NCBI RefSeq assembly: GCF_900177345.1
Contig: NZ_FWZT01000013.1
Coordinates: 124,001 to 188,000 of the forward strand
Source of the DNA: Pseudobacteriovorax antillogorgiicola
Lineage (GTDB): Bacteria > Bdellovibrionota_B > Oligoflexia > Oligoflexales > Oligoflexaceae
Direction of reading: 5' to 3'
Length of the DNA: 64,000 nt
Shown here: positions 6,395 to 28,648 of the stretch, piece after piece
Layout of the letters: every line of letters starts with the position of its first letter
How positions within the stretch are numbered: the first letter of the stretch is position 1
The notes under the pieces: generated by a model
Databases searched by the model: none
What the model saw: only the letters and a program-made list of their open reading frames with translations
Told to the model about the DNA's origin: nothing
Translations under genes and position numbers: made by a program

Positions 6395-6635
6395 CTTGGG
6401 TCCCCTCCCGTGATTTTAAATTTTGCACGTCAACTATACTTGACACGAGGGTGTTCGCACTGAGGGATAGCCACCTAAACCAGCATGGAATTCTACTCAC
6501 GATTGCCGATACTTACTTGGGGTCATTTTTCCTAGTAAAAGCGATGCAGGGATGATTGCCCCTAGAATTTATTCTCAATCACTGTCGTAGTCAGCTGATA
6601 TCAAAGTACAATAGACGCCACAGGAATTTGATGCC

Positions 6636-6800: not shown

Positions 6801-6808
6801 GACTTTTT

Positions 6809-9171: not shown

Positions 9172-9857
9172 TTTTGCTTGTGGAAGACGATCCGAGACTG
9201 GGGGAGAACATCAAGGTAAACCTTGAGCTGAGGGGATTCGATGTCGCCTTGGCCACGAGTCTTTCAAGTGCTCGATCTATTGTCCAAAACCAGCAGGTTA
9301 CAGCTAGTTTGATCGATATCGAGTTGCCCGATGGCTGCGGGCTTGACCTTTGCATCCAACTTCGAGAACGAGATTCAACATTACCAATTCTGATGATATC
9401 AGCCCGGGGCGACGAGAAAACTGTTGTTCGTGGTTTAGAAATTGGGGCTGACGACTACATTCGCAAGCCTTTTGGCATGCGTGAACTTGCGACGCGACTA
9501 GAAAAACTGCTGCACAAATATAGAAGGAAAGAGAATATAATTCAATTTGGCAGCATCGTAATTGATTTGGATAGGCGAGAAGCATACTACACCAAGACAT
9601 GTATTCCATTGGCAAAGCGTGAATTTGATCTGCTAGTATTGTTCTTAAACAACCCAGGAAGAGTATTTAGTCGCGGCCAACTGATTGACCATCTAAGCAA
9701 TGTCGAGATCATCCAAGATAGAACCGTAGATTCTCATCTATCGCACCTGCGTCGCAAGTTGAAACAAGTTGCTTGCTACGAAGTCACAATTAAATCAATC
9801 TATGGGACAGGCTATCAATTAATCGAAAATCAGGCTGATAATGAAGACAAAGACTAA
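9168..9857 (+). CDS. OmpR/PhoB-family response regulator
   Basis: A 229-residue protein with an N-terminal receiver (acidic pocket E6-D7-D8, phospho-acceptor D50 in SLIDIELPDG, conserved Lys in YIRKPFG) and a C-terminal winged helix from ~130 (KREFDLLVLFLNNPGRVFSR, ending IKSIYGTGYQLIE). The start ATG overlaps the hydroxylase stop and its own 3' end overlaps the kinase start by 17 bases. It is thus cognate to the kinase downstream and probably regulates this operon or membrane-lipid genes; the targets are inference. Confidence 0.95.
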   Translation: MILLVEDDPRLGENIKVNLELRGFDVALATSLSSARSIVQNQQVTASLIDIELPDGCGLDLCIQLRERDSTLPILMISARGDEKTVVRGLEIGADDYIRKPFGMRELATRLEKLLHKYRRKENIIQFGSIVIDLDRREAYYTKTCIPLAKREFDLLVLFLNNPGRVFSRGQLIDHLSNVEIIQDRTVDSHLSHLRRKLKQVACYEVTIKSIYGTGYQLIENQADNEDKD

Positions 9858-11247: not shown

Positions 11248-11286
11248 TGCCTGGCAACTATCAAAGCCAGTGCATTGATGATCATG

Positions 11287-12099
11287 TCACTTAAATAGCA
11301 ATTTCAGCCCAAAAAAGTTACGAGTTAAAGCAAGGTCAGGCTCGGTAAGATCCAAAGTATCGTCCGCCAGCAAAGTTGGGCTAGAGCTTACAGAGCTATC
11401 AACTTGTGAATTGCTTAGATTGAATGCCAGATAACCTTTACCAAATCGAAAAAACACCAGTTGAAGTTCGAAATATGAAATGGATAAGACCCGCGTCCGG
11501 CGCATAACAGGATCAGTATCAAAGGATTGATCATCAAATTTGTAGCTCCCGAATATCGCCTCCCCCACAAACCCCAGGGATAGTAGTAAGTCAGGCCAGC
11601 TATCTTTCGGAGTAATACCGACTGTAACATAGGGGCGTACGTTGATGGAATAGAGGTTCAGCTCGATGCTTTGGACCGGAGAATTGCTCGGCAGTTGATC
11701 TTTCGCCTCAAATTCACCATTGAGCCACTTGAAGCTAAGACCGAGATCCCAATCTAGATGCCAGAAGCCTCGACGCTTGAAGGGGTGTTCGATGAACAAG
11801 CTGAAGTTACTCACCCTTTGCTCAAACTCTATTTCACACTCAAATGTTTTCTCGGGGCTCTCTCCAACCCTATCACAGCTGTCACTATCCACATGAGGCC
11901 CATCCTCAGCTTGGAAATACCGCAGGGATGCACTGTCCGTAGTATCACCCACTTCGATACCTAATTGATAATCTAAAAAAAACTTCAGCGGTGATAGAAG
12001 ATCCGCCCAGGCAACAGCCGGCCAAGCTAAAACTACAAAACTTAGAAGTGGTTTGATATGTATCACTACGATTTGCCGACTTTGTTTCACGATCACCAT
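11287..12099 (-). CDS. Exported protein, possible outer-membrane beta-barrel
   Basis: A 270-residue protein with an N-terminal hydrophobic signal ending near AVAWA (~32); a GTG at about codon 12 is an alternative start. The remainder alternates polar and aromatic residues in strand-like segments (YFELQLVFFRFGKGYLAFNL) and ends NFFGLKLLFK, suggestive of a small outer-membrane barrel. A Cys pair (DSDSCDRVGESPEKTFECE) may form a disulphide loop. It is convergent with the kinase gene. No family is recognised. Confidence 0.6.
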   Translation of the reverse strand: MVIVKQSRQIVVIHIKPLLSFVVLAWPAVAWADLLSPLKFFLDYQLGIEVGDTTDSASLRYFQAEDGPHVDSDSCDRVGESPEKTFECEIEFEQRVSNFSLFIEHPFKRRGFWHLDWDLGLSFKWLNGEFEAKDQLPSNSPVQSIELNLYSINVRPYVTVGITPKDSWPDLLLSLGFVGEAIFGSYKFDDQSFDTDPVMRRTRVLSISYFELQLVFFRFGKGYLAFNLSNSQVDSSVSSSPTLLADDTLDLTEPDLALTRNFFGLKLLFK

Positions 12100-12315
12100 T
12101 GCCTAGTAAGCTTTTTCAACCTCTTTCCCATCGGTTAACGGCTGAATTTCCTTAGAGTCCTCAACGAAAATGAGAGTTTCTATGAAGGAAACAGAAATTA
12201 ATTTTACCATTGGCTCTAAGTCTGCCATAAGCCTTGAGTCGTTGGTCTTGTCACGTGCTCTTATAGTGAGAGAAACCATACAGGGCTACTACTTCAAACA
12301 CCTAGGGAGTCTCCT

Positions 12316-13494
12316 ATGAAACGGTTATTTCTTTTTGGCCTAATTTTATCCTCATCAGCCTCTGCTCAGTTTGATTTAAATCTGGGTAGGCTAATCCAAG
12401 GTACCTGGGTTTTTCACTCAGGGCAGCAGCTTGCTACCAATGCCTATAAGATCGTGTTCCGAGGAGATGCCAGCTGTGAATTGGTTATGTCCGAAGGCTC
12501 TGGCGAGTGCCGATGGTCGGTACGCGATCGTGAGATTTCTATCGACATGGAACAAGCTATACAGCTTTCTGGATTTACAAACGCGGTCAATCCCACAACA
12601 GGAGAGCTTGTGGAAGCCGAGTATGAAGGCCGGATTGAAGCCTTTACCTTGAGTTTGGAGAAGTTTGACTTTATCCAACCTAGCTGGAAAATCACCTATG
12701 ATGAAATCCGTAATTATCCACAGAATCCCGAGCTGCCCAGTGAGGTGATCGAAAGTTTTGATCCTCCTAAGCTTGTAGCACAGCGCTATAAATCTCTTAG
12801 GCCGTTTAAGCAAACTGGTTTACTCGCAATGAATCTTGCGGTGGGGACTGGTAATTTTGGTGGCGTCATTCGCATCAACGATGATCAATCAGCAAGTATG
12901 GAAGCTGGCTTCATAGGGCTGGAGCAAAAGGCTCTGTTTTGGAGTCAAACAGAAGCTGGATTGATGCTGAGCTATAGTCCAGGTGAATCTTCAGTTTTTC
13001 GCGTTCTCAATGATCGCCGTCTAGGAACTTATGTATTAGCCGAGATCAATCAGCTTGGTAAGAAATCCGTTCAGACCAGCTTCATTGGTCAAGTGGATGA
13101 GGCGCTGTGGAAAGAGCAGCAACTCAGTCAGGACGAATTTATGGGCACTTGGGTATTTGACTCGAACGAGCCTTATCAGTACACCTTTGGCGAAAATGGA
13201 TTCTATTCCATGGGAGATCCTACAGAAGAGCCTGCTTTTTTCGCTGAAGGCACATGGCGCGTGGAGAAGAACAAGCTCGCTGCCTATCGCTATTGGGAAT
13301 CAGAAACTGGCACGAGTCTCTCAGCCGACGATGCTAAGCTTTGTTTAAGTGAGGAGATCGACTGCGAGCTTTTTCAGTCTCGGACCTATAGGATACTCAA
13401 TCGCCGTGATGATCAGATCTTAGTACTCCGGGAACTATACGTCCCGTGGTTTGATTCCTCGTCAAACTTCGTGCATACCTTTGTCAGACTCTAG
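12316..13494 (+). CDS. Exported protein of unknown function with two GTWVF modules
   Basis: A 392-residue protein with a signal peptide (MKRLFLFGLILSSSASAQ) and a good GGGAG site. Two similar beta-rich modules begin at IQGTWVFHSGQ (~29) and FMGTWVFDSNE (~275). Each contains a GxW/GTWRV strand pattern resembling lipocalin-like or extracytoplasmic beta-barrel domains. The TAG stop (13492-13494) lies inside the left copy of the 56-bp repeat that bounds the CRISPR-Cas island, where it overlaps the stop codon of a kinase-gene remnant on the other strand. That indicates this gene and the kinase at 28594 were once adjacent and convergent. Function unknown. Confidence 0.7.
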   Translation: MKRLFLFGLILSSSASAQFDLNLGRLIQGTWVFHSGQQLATNAYKIVFRGDASCELVMSEGSGECRWSVRDREISIDMEQAIQLSGFTNAVNPTTGELVEAEYEGRIEAFTLSLEKFDFIQPSWKITYDEIRNYPQNPELPSEVIESFDPPKLVAQRYKSLRPFKQTGLLAMNLAVGTGNFGGVIRINDDQSASMEAGFIGLEQKALFWSQTEAGLMLSYSPGESSVFRVLNDRRLGTYVLAEINQLGKKSVQTSFIGQVDEALWKEQQLSQDEFMGTWVFDSNEPYQYTFGENGFYSMGDPTEEPAFFAEGTWRVEKNKLAAYRYWESETGTSLSADDAKLCLSEEIDCELFQSRTYRILNRRDDQILVLRELYVPWFDSSSNFVHTFVRL

Positions 13495-13545
13495 TGAAAC
13501 GATTCATCTCGCCATGACACTCTAAGGCTGGTACCTTGGGGTGTT
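13490..13545 (-). repeat. Left 56-bp direct repeat: duplicated 3' end of the kinase gene (att-like)
   Basis: These 56 bases match 28593-28648 at 55 positions in the same orientation. On the minus strand they encode TPQGTSLRVSWRDESFH plus stop, the C-terminus of the kinase whose full gene is at 28594-31098. The single difference (A at 13533 versus G at 28636) is a synonymous Gly codon change. The copy is cut off from the rest of a kinase gene, so it is a gene-end remnant marking the left boundary of the CRISPR-Cas island. Confidence 0.9.
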
Positions 13546-13831
13546 CAACTACTAGCCACTTTTTATTTTTGCCTATAAAGACTGTCTTCATTGCAGCGGC
13601 ACATGAACAGCCCTTGATGAGACGATCCCTTATAGGTAGCTCCAAAGCAAGCTACCGATGTAGATAATCAAGACAGTTACATGAACCCCTTTAATAATCC
13701 TGCCCAACTCTAAAGGGAATATTCTTTCCTCTAGTATGTTAGTAGACCTGTCAGGTTTTCAACACCGCCGAGAGGTGCAAAGAACGCCATGAAAATGGTT
13801 CTCCTGCCAAGAACGGATTGTTTTGCGCCAA
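13546..13831. other. Island left end/array trailer with inverted repeats
   Basis: This segment between the left 56-bp repeat and the oldest CRISPR repeat has no convincing gene. It contains a 7-bp hairpin (GGTAGCT 13635-13641, AGCTACC 13650-13656) nested within arms ACTGTCTTCATT (13581-13592) and AATCAAGACAGT (13666-13677), which pair at 11 of 12 positions. The structure could be a recombinase-binding or transcript-end structure; that is speculative. Confidence 0.5.
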
Positions 13832-16800
13832 TTTCTAAGCGGCCTGCTCCGCCGGGAACGAACCCAAACACGATAAGGATCATCACTAATGTTTCTAAGC
13901 GGCCTGCTCGGCCGGGAACGGGGGTACATTGCATTTACGCGGGCAAGGGTATTTCTAAGCGGCCTGCTCGGCCGGGAACGTTAAGCGAACTGAGTAACGC
14001 TTCCACTCACCTTTCTAAGCGGCCTGCTCGGCCGGGAACATGGCAAGATATCCGACAATGTAATACCTGATTTTCTAAGCGGCCTCCTCGGCTGGAACAA
14101 TGCAACAAAGTGTAGGAAATGTTTCATTTTTTTCTAAGCGGCCTGCTCGGCCGGGAACACTGATAGATGAAGTTGTTAATGCGGCTTGTGTTTCTAAGCG
14201 GCCTGCTCGGCCGGGAACGAAGAACCAGCATAATAGGCGACACTTTCAAATTTCTAAGCGGCCTGCTCGGCCGGGAACAAGAGGAAATTCAAAAGCTGCG
14301 AGAACAGCTATTTCTAAGCGGCCTGCTCGGCCGGGAACTCGAGAGTGGTTAAAGCAAGCTGTTCTTTCAATTTCTAAGCGGCCTGCTCGGCCGGGAACTG
14401 TGAATGGCAGAGTCGTAATTGACGGAGTATTTTCTAAGCGGCCTGCTCGGCCGGGAACTGACTTCTAGCTTTCGCTTGAAACGCGCTCTCTTTCTAAGCG
14501 GCCTGCTCGGCCGGGAACAGAAAGTATGATTGCTATTTTAAGCAGATCAAATTAAGCGGCCTGCTCGGCCGGGAACAAGGGCGGCCTTTATATTTATTCA
14601 ACTCTCTTTTTCTAAGCGGCCTGCTCGGCCGGGAACACTTAAGCCTCGTTTTTCCTCGTCTTCGCGATTTTCTAAGCGGCCTGCTCGGCCGGGAACATTA
14701 AGGCTCAAGATGAAACCATAGCTAGGCATTTCTAAGCGGCCTGCTCGGCCGGGAACGAGAAAAAATAAGTTGTATAATCAAGGAGAATTTTCTAAGCGGC
14801 CTGCTCGGCCGGGAACTTGACAACGACGAACAGACAATCCGCGAAGTATTTCTAAGCGGCCTGCTCGGCCGGGAACAATGGATGACGCCAAAACATTAGC
14901 TTGTCAGTTTTCTAAGCGGCCTGCTCGGCCGGGAACATAGTGATCCAATAGTTTTACCACTCCCACTGTTTCTAAGCGGCCTGCTCGGCCGGGAACCAAT
15001 AGACAGCGTGCAAACAGGTGTTCCGCTAGTTTCTAAGCGGCCTGCTCGGCCGGGAACACAGATACACTGAAAGCGAAAAAAAGCAAATTTTTCTAAGCGG
15101 CCTGCTCGGCCGGGAACGTTGAGCTGGCCGAACATGCGGCCCTTCATAATTTCTAAGCGGCCTGCTCGGCCGGGAACGTTGAGCTGGCCGAACATGCGGC
15201 CCTTCATAATTTCTAAGCGGCCTGCTCGGCCAGGAACTATCTTCGAAAGTAGCTATATATAAAGCTTTTTTTCTAAGCGGCCTGCTCGGCCGGGAACTAT
15301 AGAGTGGCCTAAATCCATCGACGACTTTATTTCTAAGCGGCCTGCTCGGCCGGGAACTGGGACCAAAGTTATCGACAGTGATGACGTTATTTCTAAGCGG
15401 CCTGCTCGGCCGGGAACGTTTGAGTGAGTCCGTGTCATCTCCCCTTCAGTTTCTAAGCGGCCTGCTCGGCCGGGAACGGCCACATGGCACTGCTAGCGAC
15501 CTGGCATTTCTAAGCGGCCTGCTCGGCCGGGAACCGTATGGTGCAAGACATACAGCGCGTTCTAGATTTCTAAGCGGCCTGCTCGGCCGGGAACATGGCT
15601 GTAAAAAAGATTTGCGAGCGCTCTGGTTTCTAAGCGGCCTGCTCGGCCGGGAACGTAATCAAGCTTGAGCCAATAGCTAGGAATAATTTCTAAGCGGCCT
15701 GCTCGGCCGGGAACAGACTCTGAAAGGACTTGTGAACCACCGTATATTTCTAAGCGGCCTGCTCGGCCGGGAACGAAGTTTAGAAGCTCGACCATACTGC
15801 TCGTTATTTTTAAGCGGCCTGCTCGGCCGGGAACAGTCATTTCGCTTTTGATCTTAGTCTCTGCAATTTCTAAGCGGCCTGCTCGGCCGGGAACATTCCT
15901 TTCACCGTTGGCGCATCCGTAGTTTTTTCTAAGCGGCCTGCTCGGCCGGGAACAGTAAGTTCTTCATCGGAAGCAATAGCAACGCTTTCTAAGCGGCCTG
16001 CTCGGCCGGGAACTCTCTGCTCGTATGCCGTCTTTAAAAGTGCATTTTCTAAGCGGCCTGCTCGGCCGGGAACTTTTTGTTTGGGCGAGTTTCCTATTCC
16101 TCAGTTTTCTAAGCGGCCTGCTCGGCCGGGAACTGTGAATGGCAGAGTCGTAATTGACGGAGTATTTTCTAAGCGGCCTGCTCGGCCGGGAACTGACTTC
16201 TAGCTTTCGCTTGAAACGCGCTCTCTTTCTAAGCGGCCTGCTCGGCCGGGAACAGAAAGTATGATTGCTATTTTAAGCAGATCAAATTTCTAAGCGGCCT
16301 GCTCGGCCGGGAACAAGGGCGATCTTTATATTTATTCAACTCTCTTTTTCTAAGCGGCCTGCTCGGCCGGGAACACTTAAGCCTCGTTTTTCCTCGTCTT
16401 CGCGATTTTCTAAGCGGCCTGCTCGGCCGGGAACATTAAGGCTCAAGATGAAACCATAGCTAGGCATTTCTAAGCGGCCTGCTCGGCCGGGAACAGTAGA
16501 TCAACGCTCTCCCTTACTTTTCTGGTGTTTCTAAGCGGCCTGCTCGGCCGGGAACGTGCGACGGACCAAGAGTTTGAACACTTTATTTTTCTAAGCGGCC
16601 TGCTCGGCCGGGAACTCGAAAAGCCTTCCCCCAGGACCTAGGCCAGTTTTCTAAGCGGCCTGCTCGGCCGGGAACCCAGTGGCACCGAGTTGTCGTCTGG
16701 AATAAGCATTTCTAAGCGGCCTGCTCGGCCGGGAACATCTACCCATTGAAAGCTATCATCAATCGCCATTTCTAAGCGGCCTGCTCGGCCGGGAACAAAA

Positions 16801-19800
16801 GTTCTAAAGGATCTTTGGCCGTCGTGGTTTTCTAAGCGGCCTGCTCGGCCGGGAACAAGCTCATTGCCTTTTCAGCCAACACTGAGATTTTCTAAGCGGC
16901 CTGCTCGGCCGGGAACTTCTATTAGAGCTAAGACTGAAGCAGCTAGGATTTCTAAGCGGCCTGCTCGGCCGGGAACCAGTTACTCTAGAGAATGCTGCCA
17001 AGGGTCTTTTTCTAAGCGGCCTGCTCGGCCGGGAACTCATCGATCCGTCATCTGGTAAGGTCCTTGTATTTCTAAGCGGCCTGCTCGGCCGGGAACATAA
17101 GGCAGCTTCAATTGGTGTCATCGAGAACTTTCTAAGCGGCCTGCTCGGCCGGGAACGGCATAGGCCACTCCCTGATAGTTGCCTTGTGTTTCTAAGCGGC
17201 CTGCTCGGCCGGGAACGCTCAAAGGCGGTCGTCCAATGTGGCTGCGTGTTTCTAAGCGGCCTGCTCGGCCGGGAACAATATGGTGAATTTGGATCTGTTT
17301 CAAGCTGATTTCTAAGCGGCCTGCTCGGCCGGGAACGAAACCTCAAGCGTAGACGCTGCTTGGCTGGGTTTCTAAGCGGCCTGCTCGGCCGGGAACTGGA
17401 TCGGGTGGATCTTGAGGCAAACAGCCAATTTCTAAGCGGCCTGCTCGGCCGGGAACAATGGGCGTTTGGACATTTTTTGAGACCACCTTTTCTAAGCGGC
17501 CTGCTCGGCCGGGAACAGGATGAACTAGCTTTCCAGATGACCCGTCTTTTTCTAAGCGGCCTGCTCGGCCGGGAACCTACATCAAGCTTCCGGCCCTAAA
17601 GGCAGCTTTTTCTAAGCGGCCTGCTCGGCCGGGAACATGGGTGATAGGGATCACATGCTCCAGTGTGTTTTCTAAGCGGCCTGCTCGGCCGGGAACCGGG
17701 CGCTGTTGAAATCTTTTCTCAGCTTCAATTTCTAAGCGGCCTGCTCGGCCGGGAACTTCGGCTAATTGACTATCAGAACTCTTACTAGTTTCTAAGCGGC
17801 CTGCTCGGCCGGGAACAAAAATGAGTTCTCACGTTTCACCGACGAAAATTTCTAAGCGGCCTGCTCGGCCGGGAACGGTCACGGCGATTTTCAGCAGGCA
17901 GTTGTGGTTTTCTAAGCGGCCTGCTCGGCCGGGAACTTTAAGTGTCTCACGCTTTATACCTTGCCTTTATTTCTAAGCGGCCTGCTCGGCCGGGAACAAG
18001 AAAGTTCGTCAGAAACTCCGTTCAGACGGTTTCTAAGCGGCCTGCTCGGCCGGGAACGTAGGGTCTCTCGCGGAAACATGAAACGCTTATTTCTAAGCGG
18101 CCTGCTCGGCCGGGAACTTGTACTGAATGCTATTTCGTCTCTTGCAAAATTTCTAAGCGGCCTGCTCGGCCGGGAACATCTTTTGAACGTGCCTATTTTC
18201 ATCGAATGTTTTCTAAGCGGCCTGCTCGGCCGGGAACGTGATCCCCTTTTCCATTAGTCCATACCTCATTTTCTAAGCGGCCTGCTCGGCCGGGAACAGC
18301 CATTGTAATAGACTCCGCGACCCACTTTTTTTCTAAGCGGCCTGCTCGGCCGGGAACCAGTAAATAAAGCAATTATCCTCGGCAACCTATTTCTAAGCGG
18401 CCTGCTCGGCCGGGAACCCCAAAGAAGACACTATTAAAGGGTATCTTCTTTTCTAAGCGGCCTGCTCGGCCGGGAACTTAACAAGCTAAAGTTTCAGTTT
18501 TCGGCTCTTTTTCTAAGCGGCCTGCTCGGCCGGGAACCATTGTCGTTTAGGCGATCAAAAGCTAGATATTTTCTAAGCGGCCTGCTCGGCCGGGAACACA
18601 TTCTCGAAAAAGTCTATCGCCCGAAGACATTTCTAAGCGGCCTGCTCGGCCGGGAACTCGATGGCGCGCTGGATCGCATTTTGCCATTATTTCTAAGCGG
18701 CCTGCTCGGCCGGGAACCAGTAAATAAAGCAATTATCCTCGGCAACCTATTTCTAAGCGGCCTGCTCGGCCGGGAACCCCAAAGAAGACACTATTAAAGG
18801 GTATCTTCTTTTCTAAGCGGCCTGCTCGGCCGGGAACTTAACAAGCTAAAGTTTCAGTTTTCGGCTCTTTTTCTAAGCGGCCTGCTCGGCCGGGAACCAT
18901 TGTCGTTTAGGCGATCAAAAGCTAGATATTTTCTAAGCGGCCTGCTCGACCGGGAACACATTCTCGAAAAAGTCTATCGCCCGAAGACATTTCTAAGCGG
19001 CCTGCTCGGCCGGGAACTCGATGGCGCGCTGGATCGCATTTTGCCATTATTTCTAAGCGGCCTGCTCGGCCGGGAACGTTAGGTGTGGTGTGGGTGTGCT
19101 GGGTTGTCTTTTCTAAGCGGCCTGCTCGGCCGGGAACTTAGCTGTCGCTGAAAGGATAACCCCAGAAGATTTCTAAGCGGCCTGCTCGGCCGGGAACATC
19201 CTCATTGAGAACAACGGAAAGATTATCAATTTCTAAGCGGCCTGCTCGGCCGGGAACAGGAGTGGGGCCCATGATAACCGCTTTCAAGATTTCTAAGCGG
19301 CCTGCTCGGCCGGGAACCGGTTTGCTAATTTTGTTCTAAACAACCCAGATTTCTAAGCGGCCTGCTCGGCCGGGAACGGCGAAGGTAATGCCATAGCTAG
19401 CGCCATGGGTTTCTAAGCGGCCTGCTCGGCCGGGAACGCAACTCTTTCCCTTTTGGAAAACGTGGTTATTTTCTAAGCGGCCTGCTCGGCCGGGAACGGT
19501 TTGAGGAGCCTTTACGGCCCTTGGGAATATTTCTAAGCGGCCTGCTCGGCCGGGAACGTCACGGCGATTTTCAGCAGGCGGTTGTTGTATTTCTAAGCGG
19601 CCTGCTCGGCCGGGAACGGCGGAGTAGAGTTCGGCAGTGTATTTGCTCTTTTCTAAGCGGCCTGCTCGGCCGGGAACGGAAAACTTTACCAAGTCATTAA
19701 CCCGCATATTTTCTAAGCGGCCTGCTCGGCCGGGAACGAACATTAGTTTGAACGCTTCGAACCCCATTATTTCTAAGCGGCCTGCTCGGCCGGGAACTAT

Positions 19801-20037
19801 GATGAAAGTATCGATTATGACTCTGATTGTTTCTAAGCGGCCTGCTCGGCCGGGAACATCGCTAACAGGCCTTAACTTACCCGTGCCTTTTTCTAAGCGG
19901 CCTGCTCGGCCGGGAACGAGCTGCTCCCGCCGCCGCAGGAGCTAAGTAATTTCTAAGCGGCCTGCTCGGCCGGGAACGCTCTCACAGCTCCCCCACTCTG
20001 AAGCAACAGTTTCTAAGCGGCCTGCTCGGCCGGGAAC
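13832..20037 (-). CRISPR. Type I-F CRISPR array, 104 repeats and 103 spacers
   Basis: A 28-base repeat recurs about every 60 bases; I counted 104 copies with 103 spacers, mostly 32 bases (range about 29-33). On the plus strand it reads TTTCTAAGCGGCC...GGCCGGGAAC. On the minus strand, the direction of transcription, it begins GTTCCCGGCC and ends CTTAGAAA, with the 5-bp stem CGGCC/GGCCG typical of Cas6f substrates. Orientation matches known I-F repeats, so the leader is at the right, beside cas6f. Degenerate repeats at the left (13832 CTCCGCC variant, 14072 one base short, ~14550 lacking three bases) fit the old trailer end. Variants also occur at 15210, 15807 and 18930. Several spacer blocks are duplicated (see findings). 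The open frames across the array are artefacts. Confidence 0.98.
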
Positions 20038-20182
20038 TCTGGTACAATAGACCTATGTATGCGATTTTCAAAGATCTTTTGCTGGATATCTGCTAAAGAC
20101 CTTCTTTTCTGACGTGAACATATAAATCAATAAAAACAATATGTTATGAAACTAGGAGAAAAAGAAGGTCTAAAATCGATGA
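20038..20182 (-). promoter_or_regulatory. CRISPR leader with nested inverted repeats
   Basis: The 145 AT-rich bases between cas6f and the first repeat. An outer inverted repeat pairs AGACCTTCTTTT (20097-20108) with AAAAGAAGGTCT (20160-20171). Inside it an inner one pairs AACATAT (20117-20123) with ATATGTT (20139-20145). The centre, AAATCAATAAAAAC, is a bendable A-tract such as host factors like IHF bind in other leaders. A possible minus-strand promoter is TTGAAA (20066-20071) and TATTGT (20044-20049), 16 bases apart, just before the first repeat. Leader identity follows from repeat orientation; the protein-binding and promoter assignments are inference. Confidence 0.7.
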
Positions 20183-20752
20183 TTATGGAAAGTCCGGTAC
20201 GGTAGATTGACTACTTAGTCCATAAGCGCTAAACACTCCCTCTTGGGGCCCATCGCGCTTGTTCTTTTCAATGAAAATTGGGAAGACATGGTGATTAGTA
20301 AGGCTCTCATACTCGATTCGCGGAAGCCGTGGCTGACCCATCTGTTCACCCTGACGAATCTCCTTGATAGCGGTATCAAAATCGATACCATGTCTTTTAG
20401 ATGCTCGCCTTGCTAGTTTTTCTATACTTTTTTTATTGTTCTTCCGAACAAAACATACATGCTCAATATTTGACGGGACTATTCTAGCTCGCCTGATATG
20501 AACGTAGTCTCGAAGCCTAATAAGCCACTTCTTTAAGTCCAAACTATGAAGTTCGCTCTCGTCTTTGGCGAATAAACGAAGCTTTGAGCCAACGGTTAGA
20601 CTTTCTGCATCATATTCAGGCCAAGCTAGACCTATACTGCCTGAATTATTCTCAACTAAACAAAGGTGAATTTGCTTAAACACTTTTTTCCATAGAAATG
20701 TTAAATCTACTTCCATTGAAGGCAGTAGGGTCAACTCCATATAGTATTTCAT
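20183..20752 (-). CDS. cas6f: Cas6f (Csy4) CRISPR RNA endonuclease
   Basis: A 189-residue protein, the usual Csy4 size. The catalytic His is at residue 29 (FKQIHLCL), where the well-studied Pseudomonas enzyme also has His29. The basic helix (KLARRASKRHGIDFDTAIKE) that grips the repeat hairpin and the family C-terminus YGLSSQSTVPDFP are present. It cuts the I-F repeat transcript after the hairpin stem and stays on the crRNA 3' end. The gene is last in the interference operon, 14 bases after csy3, next to the leader. Confidence 0.95.
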   Translation of the reverse strand: MKYYMELTLLPSMEVDLTFLWKKVFKQIHLCLVENNSGSIGLAWPEYDAESLTVGSKLRLFAKDESELHSLDLKKWLIRLRDYVHIRRARIVPSNIEHVCFVRKNNKKSIEKLARRASKRHGIDFDTAIKEIRQGEQMGQPRLPRIEYESLTNHHVFPIFIEKNKRDGPQEGVFSAYGLSSQSTVPDFP

Positions 20753-20766
20753 CTCCTTGAGCTCCC

Positions 20767-21783
20767 CTACTTATCACTTTCCCCAAATACGCCCCCTCGG
20801 ATGAGAACAGCCATAACATAGTGCTCATCTTCTTCTCGTTCGAGCTCGCCGCCACGTGCGTATTTATCGAATAGTGTGTAAAAATCGGCTTTCAGCTTTG
20901 GTTGACGAAAGGCTTTACCCATATTCGTTACCGAACCATATGGCTCTATTGCAATCGGACCAAGTCTACTATTGTAGTCAGGGTACCAAGTATCGATACA
21001 TCGGATCGCATTTCCTATCTTCTGAGAATGAAGAGCTGCAATACCACCTAGATTGTAGAGCACCTTGCCTTTTTTTCCTTTACCCTTGTCCATGATAAGT
21101 TCTTCGCTTGGATATACTTCTTGTCCTTCACCAAGCTTTGAGTACGCATCGACTTTGAGTAGTAAGTATCCATCTTCACTTGATAGCGTCTCGGCCACTT
21201 CCCTTGCTAGTTCTTCGATTGATTGATCTTGATCTTCAAAATCTCTAGTACTGTAGTTGTAGCTATCAAACACGAATGTTTTTTCATTGTCCTTAGTTTT
21301 CATTGAAGCAACGACTTCGATTTTCTCACTACCGACCCTGTTTCTCCATAGAAATCTGGCGTTGGCAATGTTAGTAATATATCTACGTGACAGCTCCAAA
21401 AACTGGTACTTTTCAGTGTACTTTGATAAAGTCTTTCGATACGAGTCTAGGAACCCCTCGTGATTGCAAGCTGAGGGCACATGTAACCCACCAAGAAACT
21501 TCAGTGTAAGTGATACTTTCAAAGTATCGTGGTTTAGAGGGAGTGAACATGCGTCTACAGTTTGAAGGTTGGGCTTTTGAACCTCAGCATCTAGCTTTAG
21601 AGGGTCACTTTTGAGAGCCTTTTTTAACCTATTTGATATAGTCCCCCTAACTGATTTTTCTTCTACCTTCAATTCATGAGCTTCTTTTTCTCGTCTTTCC
21701 CAAGCTGTGCTATACATATACGCTGCTGACGGGATAATTTTCTTTTCGAATGCTAAAACCGAAACTAAATCTTTTTTTGACAT
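20767..21783 (-). CDS. csy3: Cas7f (Csy3) crRNA backbone subunit
   Basis: A 338-residue protein of the expected Csy3 length with the family opening VLAFEKKIIPSAAYMYS and central ISNRLK. The segment LGGLHVPSACNHEGFL and the end YVMAVLIRGGVFGESDK also fit. Six copies coat the spacer in the type I-F surveillance complex. GGAAAGAG precedes the ATG. It sits between csy2 (11 bases upstream) and cas6f. Confidence 0.93.
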   Translation of the reverse strand: MSKKDLVSVLAFEKKIIPSAAYMYSTAWERREKEAHELKVEEKSVRGTISNRLKKALKSDPLKLDAEVQKPNLQTVDACSLPLNHDTLKVSLTLKFLGGLHVPSACNHEGFLDSYRKTLSKYTEKYQFLELSRRYITNIANARFLWRNRVGSEKIEVVASMKTKDNEKTFVFDSYNYSTRDFEDQDQSIEELAREVAETLSSEDGYLLLKVDAYSKLGEGQEVYPSEELIMDKGKGKKGKVLYNLGGIAALHSQKIGNAIRCIDTWYPDYNSRLGPIAIEPYGSVTNMGKAFRQPKLKADFYTLFDKYARGGELEREEDEHYVMAVLIRGGVFGESDK

Positions 21784-21794
21784 GATACTCTTTC

Positions 21795-22688
21795 CTAGAC
21801 TGATTGATTTCTACATAGGTACTGGCTATTTTCGCTATCGTAGTCATATGACCAGAGCATATCATCTATAGATGACAAGCTGTATGGGCTAACAAACTCT
21901 CCTAATGTTACGATGCTTTCTACAAACCGATGTGGGGTTGATGAGTCCCTAGTATTAAGTGTCTCTCCAGCATCGTATAGTTGACCAAGTCCTTGATACC
22001 CTGTCACCAAAGGAACAATCCAACCAGGGTGTTTTCGCTTGCTGTTCCATGAAACTCTTTTCTCTGCATCTTCATCTGCATCTATCTCGCTGAAGTTGCT
22101 AACCGCCAATGAATCTAGCAGTTCATCCAAATTATCTTCGGCAGCAACATTCTTGAGTAGGTCGCGTCTTTCAATAGGAATAAACCCAAATGGAATTTTC
22201 CCAATGATAGACATATAACCCTCTTCATTATCTTCAATCCCCACTAGGTAAGGGGATTGAGATTTTTGAATATCTCCACCTGCCAACTTCATCTTACTGT
22301 GAAGGATATGTTGAACGATTTCACCAATTTCAGAAAAAGGTCGAGATCCCGCGTACTGACACTCTATAGCAAGTGATACGTTCAAGTTACATCGAGCTTC
22401 TTCGATAAATGATGATCGCTCTCCCTCCTTACTTAACGGGTAAGCCTTCCCAACTATAGAATTATTATAGTCGCCTACGCCCTTGAACACAGCTAGATCA
22501 AAATCATGAATCACAATCCCCAGATTAGGAAATGATATCTCGATATGTTCTCTCCTGAGCTCTCTTTCCATCTTGTGGACGAAACCGAGCCATGCTGTAA
22601 TAGCTGGAAACCCAATTGTCAAAGAACTGGAGAGGGCATTGGCATCGGATACAGTAAGTCTAGGTATAATTAAGAATAAACGTTTCAC
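21795..22688 (-). CDS. csy2: Cas5f (Csy2) surveillance-complex subunit
   Basis: A 297-residue protein, slightly shorter than typical Csy2. It shows the family N-terminal pattern LIIPRLTVSDANALSSSLTI followed by GFPAITAWLGFVHKMER, and the RPFSEIG and GWIVPLVTGYQGLG regions. It caps the 5' handle of the crRNA together with Csy1. Translation starts at GTG 22688, overlapping the csy1 stop in GTGA, so the two subunits are translationally coupled. I see no frameshift or missing block. Confidence 0.93.
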   Translation of the reverse strand: MKRLFLIIPRLTVSDANALSSSLTIGFPAITAWLGFVHKMERELRREHIEISFPNLGIVIHDFDLAVFKGVGDYNNSIVGKAYPLSKEGERSSFIEEARCNLNVSLAIECQYAGSRPFSEIGEIVQHILHSKMKLAGGDIQKSQSPYLVGIEDNEEGYMSIIGKIPFGFIPIERRDLLKNVAAEDNLDELLDSLAVSNFSEIDADEDAEKRVSWNSKRKHPGWIVPLVTGYQGLGQLYDAGETLNTRDSSTPHRFVESIVTLGEFVSPYSLSSIDDMLWSYDYDSENSQYLCRNQSV

Positions 22689-23902
22689 CGTAGGGCAAAT
22701 CTCCTTCTTGTTCTGATTAACTTAGATATATGTCTTAGGTCTTCGTCTCCTAGGTCACAGGCTCTACTTCCTAATATCTTTCTATATGAGCGGATAAACC
22801 AACGAGAAAATTCTAGAAAAAATGTTTCTCTCAATTCATCATCTCTTTCCTCACTGAATTTGTTATCTAGAAAAACTCTCTGATAATGCGGCACACCTGA
22901 TTTAGAAACTGTTTGCCAAACGTCATCTTCTCTGAGACGATAGATGTCTGTTATTACTTGATCAAAAATATGGAGTATGAAGTTTTCATCTCGCACGCTT
23001 CTAGTTCGAAAACCATTATTATTTTGAATAACTTGAAGGTGGAAACTTTTAAAATCATCTTTAAACTGCCAAGGAGATATGCTTTCACGAAAGAAATCTT
23101 TTTTCGGCAACCTATCTGGCCTAGTTCTAACACTTGGAGGTAGACTAGGAAGTAAATACGCTTTTCCACCATTGTTTTTGTTCTGGACACTGATATTTTG
23201 AGGCTTTGTGCCTCCATACCCAATTACTGTTAGATTGAATAGATCTATGAATCCTTTATCATGGGCCTCATTCCTTTTCTTTGCCTCCCTCGCTTCCTTA
23301 GCCACATCTGAGAACTTAATAGCATCGATTCGCCTCTTCATTTCATATAGAATTGGCGATGGTCTTAGAACTGAGAGAAGATGATAGCTATTATCTACTG
23401 GAAAGTAGACTTGTTTTATTTTTGAGTTAGTGATTGCTATATCAGAAGATATGGACTTCATCTCCAGAAATCCGTTTCTAAGGTTATCAAAGGAAGCTGA
23501 TGGGATTTTCAGTAAGTCTTTTGCTATTTCGCTTCTATCTTCAATATGAGTCAGGAGGCTCCTACCGTCTCCCATTTGCAAGTTCAGAAAGCTATGCACG
23601 TCAAGTGCCGCAGCATTTCCTAGAGCATCAAGTGAAACGTCTAAGTTTCCAGTTCGAACAAAGCCGTCATCACGCTTCGATGATTCAGCTATAATAGCTG
23701 TAGTTCTCCCCGCTGAACTTGCCTTTGCACTTGGATGACTAAACGTGCATGGGTGGCTAGACAATGCGATTTGTTTTGCTCGCGCAGCAGCGCTGGGAAG
23801 CCAGTTATTCAGATCGAACTCTTCCTCAACTTCTTCCTTACTCTTTTTCTTGAGTCTTTCTTCCTTTCTTTTCTCGAAAAAAGATTCAATCGCTTCGTGC
23901 AT
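22685..23902 (-). CDS. csy1: Cas8f (Csy1) large subunit
   Basis: A 405-residue protein, a little shorter than typical Csy1. It opens with the family pattern of a charged helix (IESFFEKRKEERLKKKSKEE), then WLPSAAARAKQIALSSHPCTFSHPSAK as the first conserved block. The region from VIGYGGTKPQNISVQNKNNGG to YLLPSLPP is the second conserved block. Csy1 recognises the PAM and helps open target DNA, then recruits Cas2/3. TGGAG lies 7 bases before the ATG. It is 14 bases downstream of cas2/3. Confidence 0.93.
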   Translation of the reverse strand: MHEAIESFFEKRKEERLKKKSKEEVEEEFDLNNWLPSAAARAKQIALSSHPCTFSHPSAKASSAGRTTAIIAESSKRDDGFVRTGNLDVSLDALGNAAALDVHSFLNLQMGDGRSLLTHIEDRSEIAKDLLKIPSASFDNLRNGFLEMKSISSDIAITNSKIKQVYFPVDNSYHLLSVLRPSPILYEMKRRIDAIKFSDVAKEAREAKKRNEAHDKGFIDLFNLTVIGYGGTKPQNISVQNKNNGGKAYLLPSLPPSVRTRPDRLPKKDFFRESISPWQFKDDFKSFHLQVIQNNNGFRTRSVRDENFILHIFDQVITDIYRLREDDVWQTVSKSGVPHYQRVFLDNKFSEERDDELRETFFLEFSRWFIRSYRKILGSRACDLGDEDLRHISKLIRTRRRFALR

Positions 23903-23916
23903 AATATCTCCAGTAA

Positions 23917-26900
23917 CTATAATTTCTTATCCTCGAACATACCAAGTGCAGGATGATAGCATAATTTCTTGCCCTCTTGATAAGAGGGCAAAAGGATCTT
24001 CCCATACTTTTCAGCTGCTACAAACATTGATGTATTTTCTAGCTCAGCCAAGCTGCATAAAAGTTGGTGAAAATCTCTTGCAACAAAAAGTCGATCATAT
24101 GGGTCATATAAATCAATGAACTTAATGTTAAAACTATCTTCAATCAGATTGTAGCCATCGCTTGATTTAATATGAAATCTAAACTCTAGATCGCTACTGC
24201 ATTTCGATTCATCAGGGAGTAGAAGCAAGCTCAATCCTTGACTTCCTTCTCTAAACGGTGATTCCACCTGTGGCTGAGATGAAAGCCACCAGAACTCGTT
24301 TAGCCACCCCGCTAAAGTTTTTGCCTCTTTTGCATCATAATTGCAAAGATTTTCTTCAAGCTTTATATGTTCCAGCTTTGCGAACTCGTCGGTGTTCTCA
24401 TTGGAGATTCGTAATGATGCATCGATTCCTCTTTCACACCGTTCAATGTCTAGAATGTCAGTCAAACTATGACTACTCAAGTCACTAAATTTCTCTTGAA
24501 AACCTGGCCGATTGAAAACAGCTCTATTGACCCTATTAGATTCCCTCTGCTGTGCTTCTCGAAGGTTGAACTCAAGAATCTTGACATTCGGTTTGCTTAC
24601 ATTCAGCTTTCTATGTCTAAGAATTCGACCAACCAACTGGATGATAGATCGATAGGAAGAAGGCTCAATGATCCCCCAATCAAAATCATGATTTCTTCCA
24701 ACTTCCTCTACCGGAGTCGATACGATAATGAATAAAAAGTCACTACTATCACTTTTGTCTAGAATATCCCTTACAATATCGTGGCTAAATACTCTATCGG
24801 CATTCTTTCTATTAAGAATCTCATCCAATAGGGATTCCTGTTCATGTCTTAGAATTAGAGTCTGTTGGCTATGGTAAATGGTAAGCTTGATCTGTAGATG
24901 ACTTTCCCAATCTGCTTCAAGTAAGTATCTACCCAGCTGGACGCAGGGAGTTACATTTGCCATGCGAATAACACCGAAAGACACTCTTTTTCCTGTTAAG
25001 GGGTCAACTGAATGGTGATCATGATGCAAATTTTCTGCTTCCTTGCGGATTGCTTCAAAGAACCATTCTGACACTGAATTATACCTATCCCGTTCTGAAG
25101 GATTCAAACAGATCAGAGAAGCTTTTCTTCTTACAGGCAATTTAGAAAGATTAGCCAACCGTTTAGAAATAAACTTTTGATGGGAAGATTCGAATTTTGT
25201 AATATAGTCTCGACCAAGATCCATCAAATTTGCTACACTTTGAAATTCATCAATCCATGCAGTACCAACACTTTGATTAAAGCCTCTTGAGCTAGCGAAG
25301 ACTTTCCACCCCTTCGCATAGCAATTAAAAAAACCATTTGCTATTGCTGGCGAAATTGTTGCAGAAGAAAGAATGACTTTTCTTCCTAGCATACCGGCCA
25401 AATGAATAAGTCTGCCAACTGCAAGGAGATCTTCCTTGCCAAAATCGTCAACCTCATCGATGACTATGTCGGACGACATGAGGCGTAATAACGGTAATAT
25501 ATACTTGCCGCCCTTTCTTGTTTCGGTAGCTCCCATGACGTGATCGATAGTACATACTAGTATAGGGGCATAGAGAAAAGCCCTGTCTTTGTCTTTTTTG
25601 ATAACCGTCTTGAGAAGACTTTCGTATTCATAATTCTGGAAATCGATATCATCGTAATCTGATAGATCCTCTAGAGACTCTGATCCCATCTCGCGAGAAC
25701 TTCTTGCACTCTCTCTTTGATCTTCTACTATTCGCCTATGGTGGAGATCCATGAGTGCCTTTGAACCAACAAGTACTGCAAGGCTATCTGAGTCAAGCTG
25801 TAGGTTTTTCCGATACTCATTGCCGGTTTGGAGCGTAAGTGTTCGGAGACCTACGGCCAAAATATACCGAAGACTCTCTTGGTTTGGAGATAACGCACGC
25901 ATGATCTTAGCATTCGCTAAAGTCTTTCCAGTGCCAGTGCTAGCCATATTAACGACAAAGAAACCATATTGCTTGCTAGATTGAATAGAGCTTTCATTCT
26001 TTTCATACCAGGCGCGGATAATTTTAACCGCTTTATCTTGCCAGTTGAACTCTCGGGGGCTAGGCTTACGCAATGCTTTGATGTCTGATGCATACGGCAT
26101 TTCTTGCTCAAAGTAGGGCAACCTATAACTTACTTTGAGCGACTTCTTTGCCACATTGACAAGATGTTCATCTAGCTTCTGCTTTGCATCTCCGTTCTTG
26201 TCCGTATTTGCAATCAATCTAGATTCCACCCATGACTTATCACAATCTTCTGACGAATAAAGATGGTCTCCCATCATTAGGCTGACACGACTAAATATGG
26301 CTAGTAATCGAACGCTGCCGTTTCTGATACTTTCCTCGATTAAGGGCATTTCTCCCAAGGCACGATTCGCCCATTTTCTAATCTGCTGTTGAAGTCTGTG
26401 GCTTTCCTGAAGTAGTCCTTCTGGAAATGTAAAACAGCTTGCCTGCTCATTTTTCCTAAGCTCGTTCATATACCCCCAACCGGCATCAATCATCTGGAGA
26501 AGAGAGTCCATTGAGGGAGCGGAGTTTAAATTTTCGTATCTGCTTCGATCTTTTGAAATATGTGGAAGTTTATGATGACTTAAGATTAGCCAAGCTACAA
26601 GGCAGGCAATAGGCTGCCCCTTTCCTATTACAAGTTTTTCAGATGGGCGCGGTAACTTGCCCCCACTGAAGCCATTTATTGATAACTCCTCCAGCCATTT
26701 CTTGTCAGACTTTTCAAACACAAAGTTGAGGAACAGATTTGTCGATACCCATTCATGTCTAAATGGATCGCTTTTTGAAGCACCACTCCGTTTAAGCTTA
26801 TTTTGAAAACACTCTGAAGCCTTTCCAATATCATGAAACAAAGCACTGAGTGCCGAAAGTGCTTGAATCGCAGGTAGCAGTTGCCACTGATTCTCCACCT

Positions 26901-27195
26901 GAGGGTAATCAATACTTGTTTTATGGACTGGCGAGTACCCTTCACTGCTGAACGCTTCTTTGTTCCCCACTATCCACTGAAGTTCCATTCCTGAATGACC
27001 ACGAAGCTTAAAACATGAAACAGCAGTATTCCTGGTAGCAGATTTTCTCAGTAGCTTTCTAACTGCAAGCAAGCCCTCCATTGTGATCGTAGTGCTCCAA
27101 GTTCGCCTGCCTATTCTATTAGCGAATGAATCCAGGACTCTCTGTGTTCGAGACAGTGCCTTTTTTTCACATAGAGAGTTGAATACGACGATCAC
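23917..27195 (-). CDS. cas3: Cas2-Cas3 fusion nuclease-helicase
   Basis: A 1092-residue type I-F Cas2/3 protein. Residues ~1-95 (MIVVFNSLCEKKALSRTQRV...) are the fused Cas2 domain that joins Cas1 for spacer integration. The HD nuclease motif ALFHDIGKA has His121-Asp122. The SF2 helicase has Walker A STGTGKT (~419-425), DEVDD (~580-584) and the VEEVGRNHDFDWGI and QLVGRILRHRK motifs. It degrades DNA opened by the Csy complex and also takes part in adaptation. Translation starts at GTG 27195 with GAAAGGA upstream. All key motifs are intact, so interference and adaptation should be functional. Confidence 0.96.
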   Translation of the reverse strand: MIVVFNSLCEKKALSRTQRVLDSFANRIGRRTWSTTITMEGLLAVRKLLRKSATRNTAVSCFKLRGHSGMELQWIVGNKEAFSSEGYSPVHKTSIDYPQVENQWQLLPAIQALSALSALFHDIGKASECFQNKLKRSGASKSDPFRHEWVSTNLFLNFVFEKSDKKWLEELSINGFSGGKLPRPSEKLVIGKGQPIACLVAWLILSHHKLPHISKDRSRYENLNSAPSMDSLLQMIDAGWGYMNELRKNEQASCFTFPEGLLQESHRLQQQIRKWANRALGEMPLIEESIRNGSVRLLAIFSRVSLMMGDHLYSSEDCDKSWVESRLIANTDKNGDAKQKLDEHLVNVAKKSLKVSYRLPYFEQEMPYASDIKALRKPSPREFNWQDKAVKIIRAWYEKNESSIQSSKQYGFFVVNMASTGTGKTLANAKIMRALSPNQESLRYILAVGLRTLTLQTGNEYRKNLQLDSDSLAVLVGSKALMDLHHRRIVEDQRESARSSREMGSESLEDLSDYDDIDFQNYEYESLLKTVIKKDKDRAFLYAPILVCTIDHVMGATETRKGGKYILPLLRLMSSDIVIDEVDDFGKEDLLAVGRLIHLAGMLGRKVILSSATISPAIANGFFNCYAKGWKVFASSRGFNQSVGTAWIDEFQSVANLMDLGRDYITKFESSHQKFISKRLANLSKLPVRRKASLICLNPSERDRYNSVSEWFFEAIRKEAENLHHDHHSVDPLTGKRVSFGVIRMANVTPCVQLGRYLLEADWESHLQIKLTIYHSQQTLILRHEQESLLDEILNRKNADRVFSHDIVRDILDKSDSSDFLFIIVSTPVEEVGRNHDFDWGIIEPSSYRSIIQLVGRILRHRKLNVSKPNVKILEFNLREAQQRESNRVNRAVFNRPGFQEKFSDLSSHSLTDILDIERCERGIDASLRISNENTDEFAKLEHIKLEENLCNYDAKEAKTLAGWLNEFWWLSSQPQVESPFREGSQGLSLLLLPDESKCSSDLEFRFHIKSSDGYNLIEDSFNIKFIDLYDPYDRLFVARDFHQLLCSLAELENTSMFVAAEKYGKILLPSYQEGKKLCYHPALGMFEDKKL

Positions 27196-27382
27196 AGCAG
27201 GGTCCTTTCAATGTTCACTATAAAACGAGAAAACAACTAATTAGAAATACAACTACTACTGTCTTAGAATATAGCGGCTAACGGGGCCCCTTAATATGTT
27301 GCAAAAGAATTCTGACTTTCTGACAAGCGTAGAAATTCGCTATTCTTAACTACGTTAAATCAACCACGGCCGAATAGGCCGC
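27196..27382. promoter_or_regulatory. cas1-cas2/3 intergenic region with GGGGCCCC palindrome
   Basis: An unusually long gap (187 bases) in an otherwise tightly packed cas operon. It holds a GGGGCCCC palindrome (27283-27290) within a 12/16 symmetric element, a possible operator, and the lone CRISPR-repeat-like hairpin at 27362-27389. A promoter for the downstream interference genes is likely here, but no clear -35/-10 pair stands out. Confidence 0.5.
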
Positions 27383-27389
27383 TTAAATT
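27362..27389 (+). repeat. Orphan CRISPR-repeat-like hairpin at the cas1 3' end
   Basis: CGGCCGAATAGGCCG (27367-27381) followed by CTTAAA matches the array repeat core (CGGCC-GAGCA-GGCCG-CTTAGA). About 18 of 22 core positions agree, including the whole stem and the G...A loop ends. It reads in repeat orientation on the plus strand, opposite to the array, and overlaps the cas1 stop codon. It is a single copy about 7.3 kb from the array. Confidence 0.75.
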
Positions 27390-28324
27390 TCCATCCGAGA
27401 CACCTTCTTAATACAGTTAAACATGTAGTCCAAGGCCTTGTGATCTGTAAGTTTCATGATGCATGTTGAACGGAACTCCTGTTCAGAATCTCCTTGCTTG
27501 GCTGATATAAAAGCTTGGGGAAGGATAATCGCATCCTTTACAAGATCTGCAATATCAAATACCAGCGCACCTTTCCTGGTCTTCCCATGCATCACTGCAA
27601 ATCCATAGGGGATTCCCAGAACCCAAAGCGATGTTGCTGCTAGGCCATAGGCCAGGTAGTTGCCATGGGAAAGAAACGTATTCTGAGGATCTGTGGACTT
27701 ATGATCACGCTTAAAGTCTTCGAGCTCAGTCTTTTCTCGGGAATATCGATACAGAAAGCTAGTCAGTTCGCCCTCTACTCCAAGTAGCTGAGAGATACTA
27801 TTGGCCCGGTTAAACTTTTTCCCGTATCTATCTAAGGCAGACTCCATGTCATAGTCTTCGGCATCGAACCCTTTATCCAGTAGATCTTTATCCTTACTCC
27901 AGACCAACTCAATGAACTCAAGACGAGATCGTTGAAAGTACTTTGCAGCTTTTAAGCGTTTACTTTCTTCAAACCAGAATGACATCCATCCCTGGAGGTA
28001 TTCGGTTGGACGATATTCACCATGGGGAACAAGCCACTCTACTTCGGTACCCATGAGTAGAGGGGTGCCGCCTCCTCCTGTAAAACCAATGACAACACCA
28101 GCTGAAGCCAGCATTCGCACAGCCGCTTGGGTTATCGATGTACCATTCCCTAATAGGATTACTGTCGTATTAGCAATTGGAATATTCCAGTAGTTATTTG
28201 TTCTATTTTTGTGGCTTAAATAGAGGACCCTACCGTCCTTCTGAAGTACCTTACAGTGCTCGATATAGAATATATTAGCTCTTTTTGAGTGAAGAATTGC
28301 TTTTAGATCAGTCAGGGATTCCAA
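27383..28324 (-). CDS. cas1: Cas1 integrase, type I-F
   Basis: A 313-residue protein of the I-F Cas1 group (NTTVILLGNGTSITQAAVRM near the N-terminus). The metal ligands expected for Cas1 are present: Glu in LLGVEGELT (E184/E186), His246 in AVMHGKTRKG and Asp in VFDIADLVKDA (D257/D260). With the Cas2 part of Cas2/3 it inserts new spacers at the leader end. Translation probably starts at TTG 28324 after GAGGT. It is the first gene of the cas cluster, separated by 187 bases from cas2/3, so the rest may be transcribed separately. Confidence 0.95.
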   Translation of the reverse strand: MESLTDLKAILHSKRANIFYIEHCKVLQKDGRVLYLSHKNRTNNYWNIPIANTTVILLGNGTSITQAAVRMLASAGVVIGFTGGGGTPLLMGTEVEWLVPHGEYRPTEYLQGWMSFWFEESKRLKAAKYFQRSRLEFIELVWSKDKDLLDKGFDAEDYDMESALDRYGKKFNRANSISQLLGVEGELTSFLYRYSREKTELEDFKRDHKSTDPQNTFLSHGNYLAYGLAATSLWVLGIPYGFAVMHGKTRKGALVFDIADLVKDAIILPQAFISAKQGDSEQEFRSTCIMKLTDHKALDYMFNCIKKVSRMEI

Positions 28325-28592
28325 GTGTTACCTCTAATGCTACTTTAAATCTATCGGAGCATCTCATCTTACCCTTCAAGGGCTCACGATCCATCGATAT
28401 AACTGGCATGACTACTGCAGATCGCCTACCAACTAACAGTGCTATATAAGCTTTACCAACTAGTGGTTTCATTCAGCCAAGGTGGCATTCAAAACTAAAG
28501 TAGTCCTTGCTATATGAGTTGAGATGCATTTGATGAGAGGTTATTGCATTCGCACTAGGAAATATTTGAAGACTTTAGATCACTTTGTCTGA
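28325..28592. other. Right end of the CRISPR-Cas island, promoter region of cas1
   Basis: About 270 bases between cas1 and the right 56-bp repeat. There is no ORF and no integrase or transposase fragment. TACCAACTA occurs twice, 27 bases apart (28427 and 28454), which may be chance. The cas1 promoter must lie here. Confidence 0.5.
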
Positions 28593-28648
28593 TCTAGTGA
28601 AACGATTCATCTCGCCATGACACTCTAAGGCTGGTGCCTTGGGGTGTT
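28593..28648 (-). repeat. Right 56-bp direct repeat within the kinase gene 3' end (att-like)
   Basis: This is the in-place 3' end of the kinase gene, matching the left copy at 13490-13545 with one synonymous difference. Everything between the two copies is the CRISPR-Cas locus plus short flanks. Confidence 0.9.

What the first reader, a model, noticed from the sequence alone, without database searches (positions are those of the whole stretch)
13490..28648. CRISPR-Cas island inserted at a kinase-gene 3' end, flanked by a 56-bp direct repeat of that end
The 56 bases at 13490-13545 repeat at 28593-28648 in the same orientation (55/56 identical; the single change is a synonymous Gly codon). The right copy is the real C-terminus of the kinase gene; the left copy is an orphan of it, abutting the next gene. 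At the left, the stop of the gene ending at 13494 and the kinase-remnant stop overlap in CTAG, so the two genes were once convergent neighbours. The entire type I-F locus lies between the copies. This matches site-specific insertion with duplication of a gene end, as integrases do. Yet no integrase or transposase is inside, so the mover was lost or acts in trans.
Basis: partly seen in the sequence, partly recalled or inferred. Interest (0 to 1): 0.85.

Follow-up and report, generated by a model that had tools for sequence, protein, structure and literature searches.

The report
CRISPR island flanked by integrase scars
A complete CRISPR-Cas immune system sits in a 15-kb DNA insert whose two ends carry the same 56-base copy of a neighbouring gene's tail, the scar usually left by an integrase enzyme, but no integrase gene remains, so it looks like an ordinary kind of decayed mobile island carrying immune genes.

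Summary
A 56-bp direct repeat (13490-13545 and 28593-28648, 55/56 identical) brackets a complete type I-F CRISPR-Cas locus (cas1, cas2-3, csy1-4 and a 104-repeat array) and nothing else recognisable. In 2.8 Mb surveyed (39% of this genome), the only non-dispersed pair with a longer exact core is the 69-bp repeat of a tRNA-gene island that carries its own integrase. Joining the flanks with one copy gives two intact convergent genes (392 and 834 aa) with overlapping stops. The kinase-proximal end of the repeat holds an imperfect 11-6-11 inverted repeat, as expected of a tyrosine-recombinase core site (shuffles reaching it: 1.4%). Type I-F loci occur in only 4 of 58 genomes of the phylum, and the closest Cas proteins found are mainly gammaproteobacterial, so acquisition was probably horizontal. 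Best reading: integrase-mediated insertion at a histidine-kinase gene 3' end, followed by loss of the integrase (or supply in trans), giving a CIME-like island. The empty site could not be seen because no congener was found in the collections searched. CRISPR-Cas on attachment-site-flanked islands, and CRISPR regions without an integrase, are already described in Vibrio. The example and its lineage are new; the principle is not.

The parts
12316..13494 (+). left native neighbour gene (392 aa, weak DUF5640 similarity); its stop TAG overlaps the left repeat copy
   Evidence: A homologue in a family member (G001:C113) aligns to its last residues, so its end is native
13490..13545 (+). left copy of the 56-bp direct repeat, attachment-site-like; on the - strand it holds the last 17 codons and stop of the kinase
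13517..13544 (.). imperfect inverted repeat ACACTCTAAGG-CTGGTA-CCTTGGGGTGT (9 of 11 arm pairs), candidate recombinase core, left copy
   Evidence: 69 of 5000 shuffles and 27 of 1269 window 56-mers reach this score
13546..13831 (.). non-coding left end of the island, between repeat copy and array; no integrase remnant
13832..20037 (-). type I-F CRISPR array, 104 repeats and 103 spacers, transcribed leftwards judging by repeat orientation; degenerate repeats lie mostly towards the left (leader-distal) end
20183..20752 (-). csy4 (cas6f)
   Evidence: PF09618, E 4e-52
20767..21783 (-). csy3 (cas7f)
   Evidence: PF09615, E 1.1e-141
21795..22688 (-). csy2 (cas5f)
   Evidence: PF09614, E 1.2e-85
22685..23902 (-). 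csy1 (cas8f)
   Evidence: PF09611, E 4.9e-95
23917..27195 (-). cas2-3 fusion
   Evidence: PF21384, E 2.4e-30, plus helicase and HD domains
27383..28324 (-). cas1
   Evidence: PF01867, E 3.4e-14
28325..28592 (.). non-coding right end of the island, at the place where a flanking integrase gene would be expected; none present
28593..28648 (+). right copy of the 56-bp direct repeat; ends the kinase gene in frame
28620..28647 (.). candidate recombinase core in the right copy (ACACTCTAAGG-CTGGTG-CCTTGGGGTGT), encoding the conserved GTSLRV end motif of the kinase on the - strand
28594..31098 (-). target gene: TPR-Hpt-HATPase histidine kinase, 834 aa; three full-length paralogues in the genome end in a similar motif

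Best explanation
[quoted passage not shown] It entered by site-specific recombination, most likely by a tyrosine recombinase, between a site in the last codons of a histidine-kinase gene and a matching site on a circular element. The element's site carried a copy of the gene tail, so the kinase stayed whole and the old tail was displaced 15.1 kb to the left. The integrase (and any transfer genes) has since been lost or is supplied in trans, leaving a CIME-like island: attachment sites plus cargo. Shown: the repeat, the island boundaries, the intact flanking genes after joining, the absence of a mover, and the foreign look of the cas genes. Inferred: the recombinase class, the direction of transfer, and the loss of the integrase.
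For: A 55/56 direct repeat marks both ends and occurs nowhere else in the genome. In 39% of the genome the only non-dispersed isolated pair with a longer exact core is a 69-bp tRNA pair flanking a 25.6-kb island with its integrase 0.2 kb from the intact tRNA. A single-copy join restores both convergent genes at full length, and both gene ends are supported by homologues. A candidate core inverted repeat lies exactly at the gene-proximal end of the repeat, where crossover must fall. Type I-F is absent from the six other family members and present in only 4 of 58 genomes of the phylum. The closest Csy3 found is 59-63% identical, in gammaproteobacteria and a Helicobacteraceae MAG, against 47% in the best phylum relative. 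cas genes have 40-44% GC against 46% around. Repeat length and target fit what is known of integrase islands (8-60 bp repeats, gene 3' ends; PMC5704250).
Against: No empty site seen in any relative. No integrase gene or remnant to tie to the site. The core inverted repeat is imperfect and only moderately unlikely by chance (1.4-2%). The one mismatch lies inside the putative crossover spacer.
Confidence: 0.72

Rival explanations
1. Campbell-type homologous insertion: a circular DNA carrying the CRISPR-Cas locus and a fragment of a related kinase 3' end recombined by RecA over about 56 bp, duplicating the shared stretch without any integrase.
For: It gives the same anatomy and explains the missing integrase. 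Similarity continues imperfectly beyond the repeat into the end of gene 12316 (CTTTGTCAGACTCTAG versus CTTTGTCTGATCTAG; 50 of 20000 random 14-mers score as well), as if the element once held a longer piece of this locus. Type I-F loci are found on plasmids.
Against: 56 bp is short for efficient homologous recombination. The homology ends exactly at a core-like inverted repeat in a gene 3' end, the usual integrase geometry.
Confidence: 0.15
2. Duplication first: the kinase tail was duplicated locally (replication slippage or tandem duplication) and the CRISPR-Cas segment arrived between the copies by illegitimate recombination.
For: No mover is present; tandem duplications do occur in this genome (C10).
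Against: It needs two coincident events; the copies bracket the island exactly, with no leftover kinase or neighbour sequence on the island side beyond the repeat.
Confidence: 0.08
3. A transposon, a Cas1-driven (casposon-like) insertion or a CRISPR-associated Tn7-like element made the duplication.
For: Tn7-like elements often carry mini type I-F systems (PMC6360697).
Against: This locus has cas1 and cas2-3 and no tns/tniQ genes. The Tn7 target duplication is usually 5 bp, far shorter than 56 bp.
Confidence: 0.03

Closest known systems
CIME (cis-mobilizable element): a decayed ICE/IME that kept attL and attR but lost integration and transfer genes (PMC5704250)
   Same: Cargo between two direct repeats at a protein-gene 3' end, target gene kept whole, no integrase or transfer genes
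   Different: No related ICE/IME with an integrase at this site was found, and mobilisation is untested
VPI-6-type excisable islands carrying type I-F CRISPR-Cas in Vibrio cholerae (PMC6360697)
   Same: Complete canonical type I-F locus on a genomic island flanked by attachment sites and absent from related genomes
   Different: VPI-6 is about 29 kb and keeps a tyrosine integrase; here the island is 15 kb, only CRISPR-Cas, at a kinase gene, in another phylum
The 25.6-kb tRNA-gene island in the same genome (contig C2, 198649-224301)
   Same: Direct repeat that duplicates a gene's end; intact target gene at one end, fragment at the other
   Different: Keeps a 369-aa tyrosine recombinase next to the tRNA; its repeat shares at most a 7-bp word with the 56-bp repeat

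Membership tests
Integrase-type genomic island | Direct repeats (attL/attR) at both ends that duplicate the end of a target gene | tested here: met
Integrase-type genomic island | Removing the insert with one repeat restores intact neighbours | tested here: met
   392 and 834 aa with either copy
Integrase-type genomic island | Recombinase core site (short inverted arms around a 6-8 bp spacer) within the repeat | tested here: inconclusive
   9 of 11 arm pairs, 6-bp spacer, about 1.4% by shuffling
Integrase-type genomic island | Integrase gene inside | tested here: not met
   the five genome-wide PF00589 matches lie on other contigs. This rules out an autonomous island, not a CIME
Integrase-type genomic island | Empty site in relatives | not testable with these tools
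   No congener found; no synteny in the nearest family member
CIME (cis-mobilizable element) | attL and attR kept, integration and transfer genes absent | tested here: met
   provided that the repeats are attachment sites
CIME (cis-mobilizable element) | Derived from, or mobilised by, an ICE/IME with the same att site | not testable with these tools
   No element with this site found; the 23-bp core pattern had no match in viral contigs
Type I-F CRISPR-Cas | cas1, cas2-3 fusion, csy1-csy4 and an I-F array | tested here: met
Tn7-like CRISPR-associated transposon | tnsABC and tniQ genes, mini I-F without cas1 and cas2-3 | tested here: not met

The most novel reading that the evidence does not exclude
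The CRISPR-Cas system travels as a minimal 'immunity-only' cassette: attachment sites plus cas genes and array, moved in trans by integrases of other elements that recognise the conserved 3' coding motif of HATPase-type histidine kinases. This would be a non-autonomous mobile CRISPR unit without any mover of its own.
Probability: 0.1. Interest if true: 0.6.

Novelty: new member of a known kind. Interest (0 to 1): 0.32.

Why it matters
It gives a clean, compact case of how a whole adaptive immune system is acquired by a lineage that mostly lacks it: 15 kb, intact neighbours on both sides, with boundaries exact to the base. It also adds a histidine-kinase gene 3' end to the protein-gene insertion sites and gives base-exact junctions that a PCR or read search can test. 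The principle itself, CRISPR-Cas carried on islands flanked by attachment sites, is established.

Tried and rejected
Empty-site search: kinase protein in 56 relatives and in a genome-contig collection, gene 12316 in 18 relatives; no orthologous locus. Search for the site core in viral contigs: none. Integrase remnants in the two non-coding ends: none. A 107-bp repeat pair on contig C2 first looked like another integrase-less island but is two copies of a dispersed palindromic MITE/REP-like element. Considered whether the CTAGTG start of the 56-bp repeat belongs to that element family; it lacks the palindrome and shares only those 6 bases, so rejected. Looked for similar flanking repeats at other type I-F loci: nothing clearly comparable. 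Spacer matches to phages: none convincing (best 85% over 47 bases). Serine recombinases are present in the genome but not in the island, and serine integrases leave very short repeats (PMC5704250). Integrases in nine gammaproteobacterial genomes with related type I-F loci were listed but not mapped against the cas loci, so nothing is concluded from them.

Full report
Observation. The 56 bases at 13490-13545 recur in the same orientation at 28593-28648 with one difference (sequence). Their 43-bp exact core is the longest exact direct repeat in the window outside the CRISPR array. A 24-base probe from the repeat, with up to three mismatches, finds just these two places in the whole 7.28-Mb genome, so it is not a dispersed repeat or a common kinase end.

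Background. I fetched 2.82 Mb of the genome (39%) in stretches and listed all isolated exact direct repeats of at least 22 bp lying 1.5-80 kb apart. Apart from two gene duplications on contig C10 and the CRISPR array, only seven pairs exist. The two with a longer exact core than this one are (a) a 69-bp pair on C2 that duplicates a tRNA end, 25.6 kb apart, with a complete tRNA at one end and a fragment at the other and a 369-aa tyrosine recombinase 0.2 kb from the complete tRNA, a textbook integrase island; and (b) two copies of a dispersed palindromic element. So the method finds a real island in this same genome, and the kinase pair is next in rank.

Content. Between the copies lie cas1, a cas2-3 fusion and csy1-csy4 and an array of 104 repeats and 103 spacers, all in type I-F order and on the minus strand. 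The non-coding ends (286 and 268 bp) contain no recognisable integrase fragment. The genome has five PF00589 matches and four PF00239 matches; none is on the window's contig.

Target site. Joining the left flank, one repeat copy and the right flank gives a 392-aa gene and an 834-aa kinase, both full length, whichever copy is kept. They are convergent, with stop codons overlapping in CTAG. Both ends look native: the left protein's homologue in the nearest family member aligns to its last residues, and three full-length kinase paralogues end in a motif like the GTSLRVSW that the repeat encodes.

Mechanism. The kinase-proximal half of the repeat is an imperfect inverted repeat, ACACTCTAAGG-CTGGTR-CCTTGGGGTGT: 9 of 11 arm positions, 6-bp spacer, reached by 69 of 5000 shuffles and 27 of 1269 window 56-mers. 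Tyrosine recombinases use sites of this shape (established knowledge), and crossover has to be at this end of the repeat if the gene is to be kept whole. In that model the kinase's present tail came with the element and the left 'orphan' is the original tail. Repeats of 8-60 bp and insertion at protein-gene 3' ends are normal for tyrosine-recombinase elements, and elements that kept both attachment sites but lost integration and transfer genes have a name, CIME (PMC5704250). Left of the repeat a weaker similarity continues (CTTTGTC..TCTAG; 50 of 20000 random 14-mers score as well), as if the element's site had come from a related locus; this is suggestive only.

Horizontal origin. Csy3 is found in 4 of 58 genomes of the phylum, and in none of the six other members of the family. 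The best phylum relative is 47% identical, whereas a Chromatiales MAG, a Helicobacteraceae MAG, and Vibrio, Allopseudospirillum and Oceanospirillales proteins are 59-63% identical. The cas genes have 40-44% GC against 46% for a 34-kb stretch to the right. No tree was built, so the donor is not identified.

What is not shown. No congener was found, so the empty site was not seen. Nothing ties a particular integrase to the site, and homologous (Campbell) insertion over 56 bp gives the same anatomy. Loss of the integrase and action in trans cannot be told apart.

Novelty. Type I-F CRISPR-Cas on an excisable island with attachment sites is known from Vibrio cholerae VPI-6, and a CRISPR-bearing region without any integrase or transposase has been reported in Vibrio harveyi (PMC6360697). 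This is a compact new member of a known kind in a new lineage and at a target gene I did not find described.

Noticed in passing
window 57114-57240; also contigs C1-C4, C6: A dispersed palindromic intergenic element of about 127 bp with ends CTAGTGCYTAGTC...GACTARGCACTAG, 28 element ends in 2.8 Mb: a MITE/REP-like family.
   Followed up: partly
window 14399-16500 and 18358-19050: The array contains block duplications: eleven spacers occur twice, including six consecutive ones 360 bp apart, and a 171-bp exact repeat 1738 bp apart. It was reshaped by recombination as well as by spacer acquisition.
   Followed up: partly
contig C2:198649-224301 of the same genome (L063, L032): A 25.6-kb integrase island at a tRNA gene with a 69-bp direct repeat; the tRNA lies next to what looks like the rpoD gene end.
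   Followed up: partly
contig C10:188253 and 230132: A 22-bp partly palindromic direct repeat 41.9 kb apart, one copy about 0.5 kb upstream of a 370-aa tyrosine recombinase gene; possible ends of another island.
   Followed up: no
L037 (G049), about 1200-14400: In another genome of the same class the type I-F locus lies between an ada/alkA-type gene and an ogt-type methyltransferase gene, a different site, without flanking repeats in the 35 kb examined.
   Followed up: no
L045 (Salinivibrio siamensis), 950-1280 and 12266-12354: Type I-F locus bracketed by several copies of a sequence ending in CGTTGGC that may be integron attC sites; not examined further.
   Followed up: no
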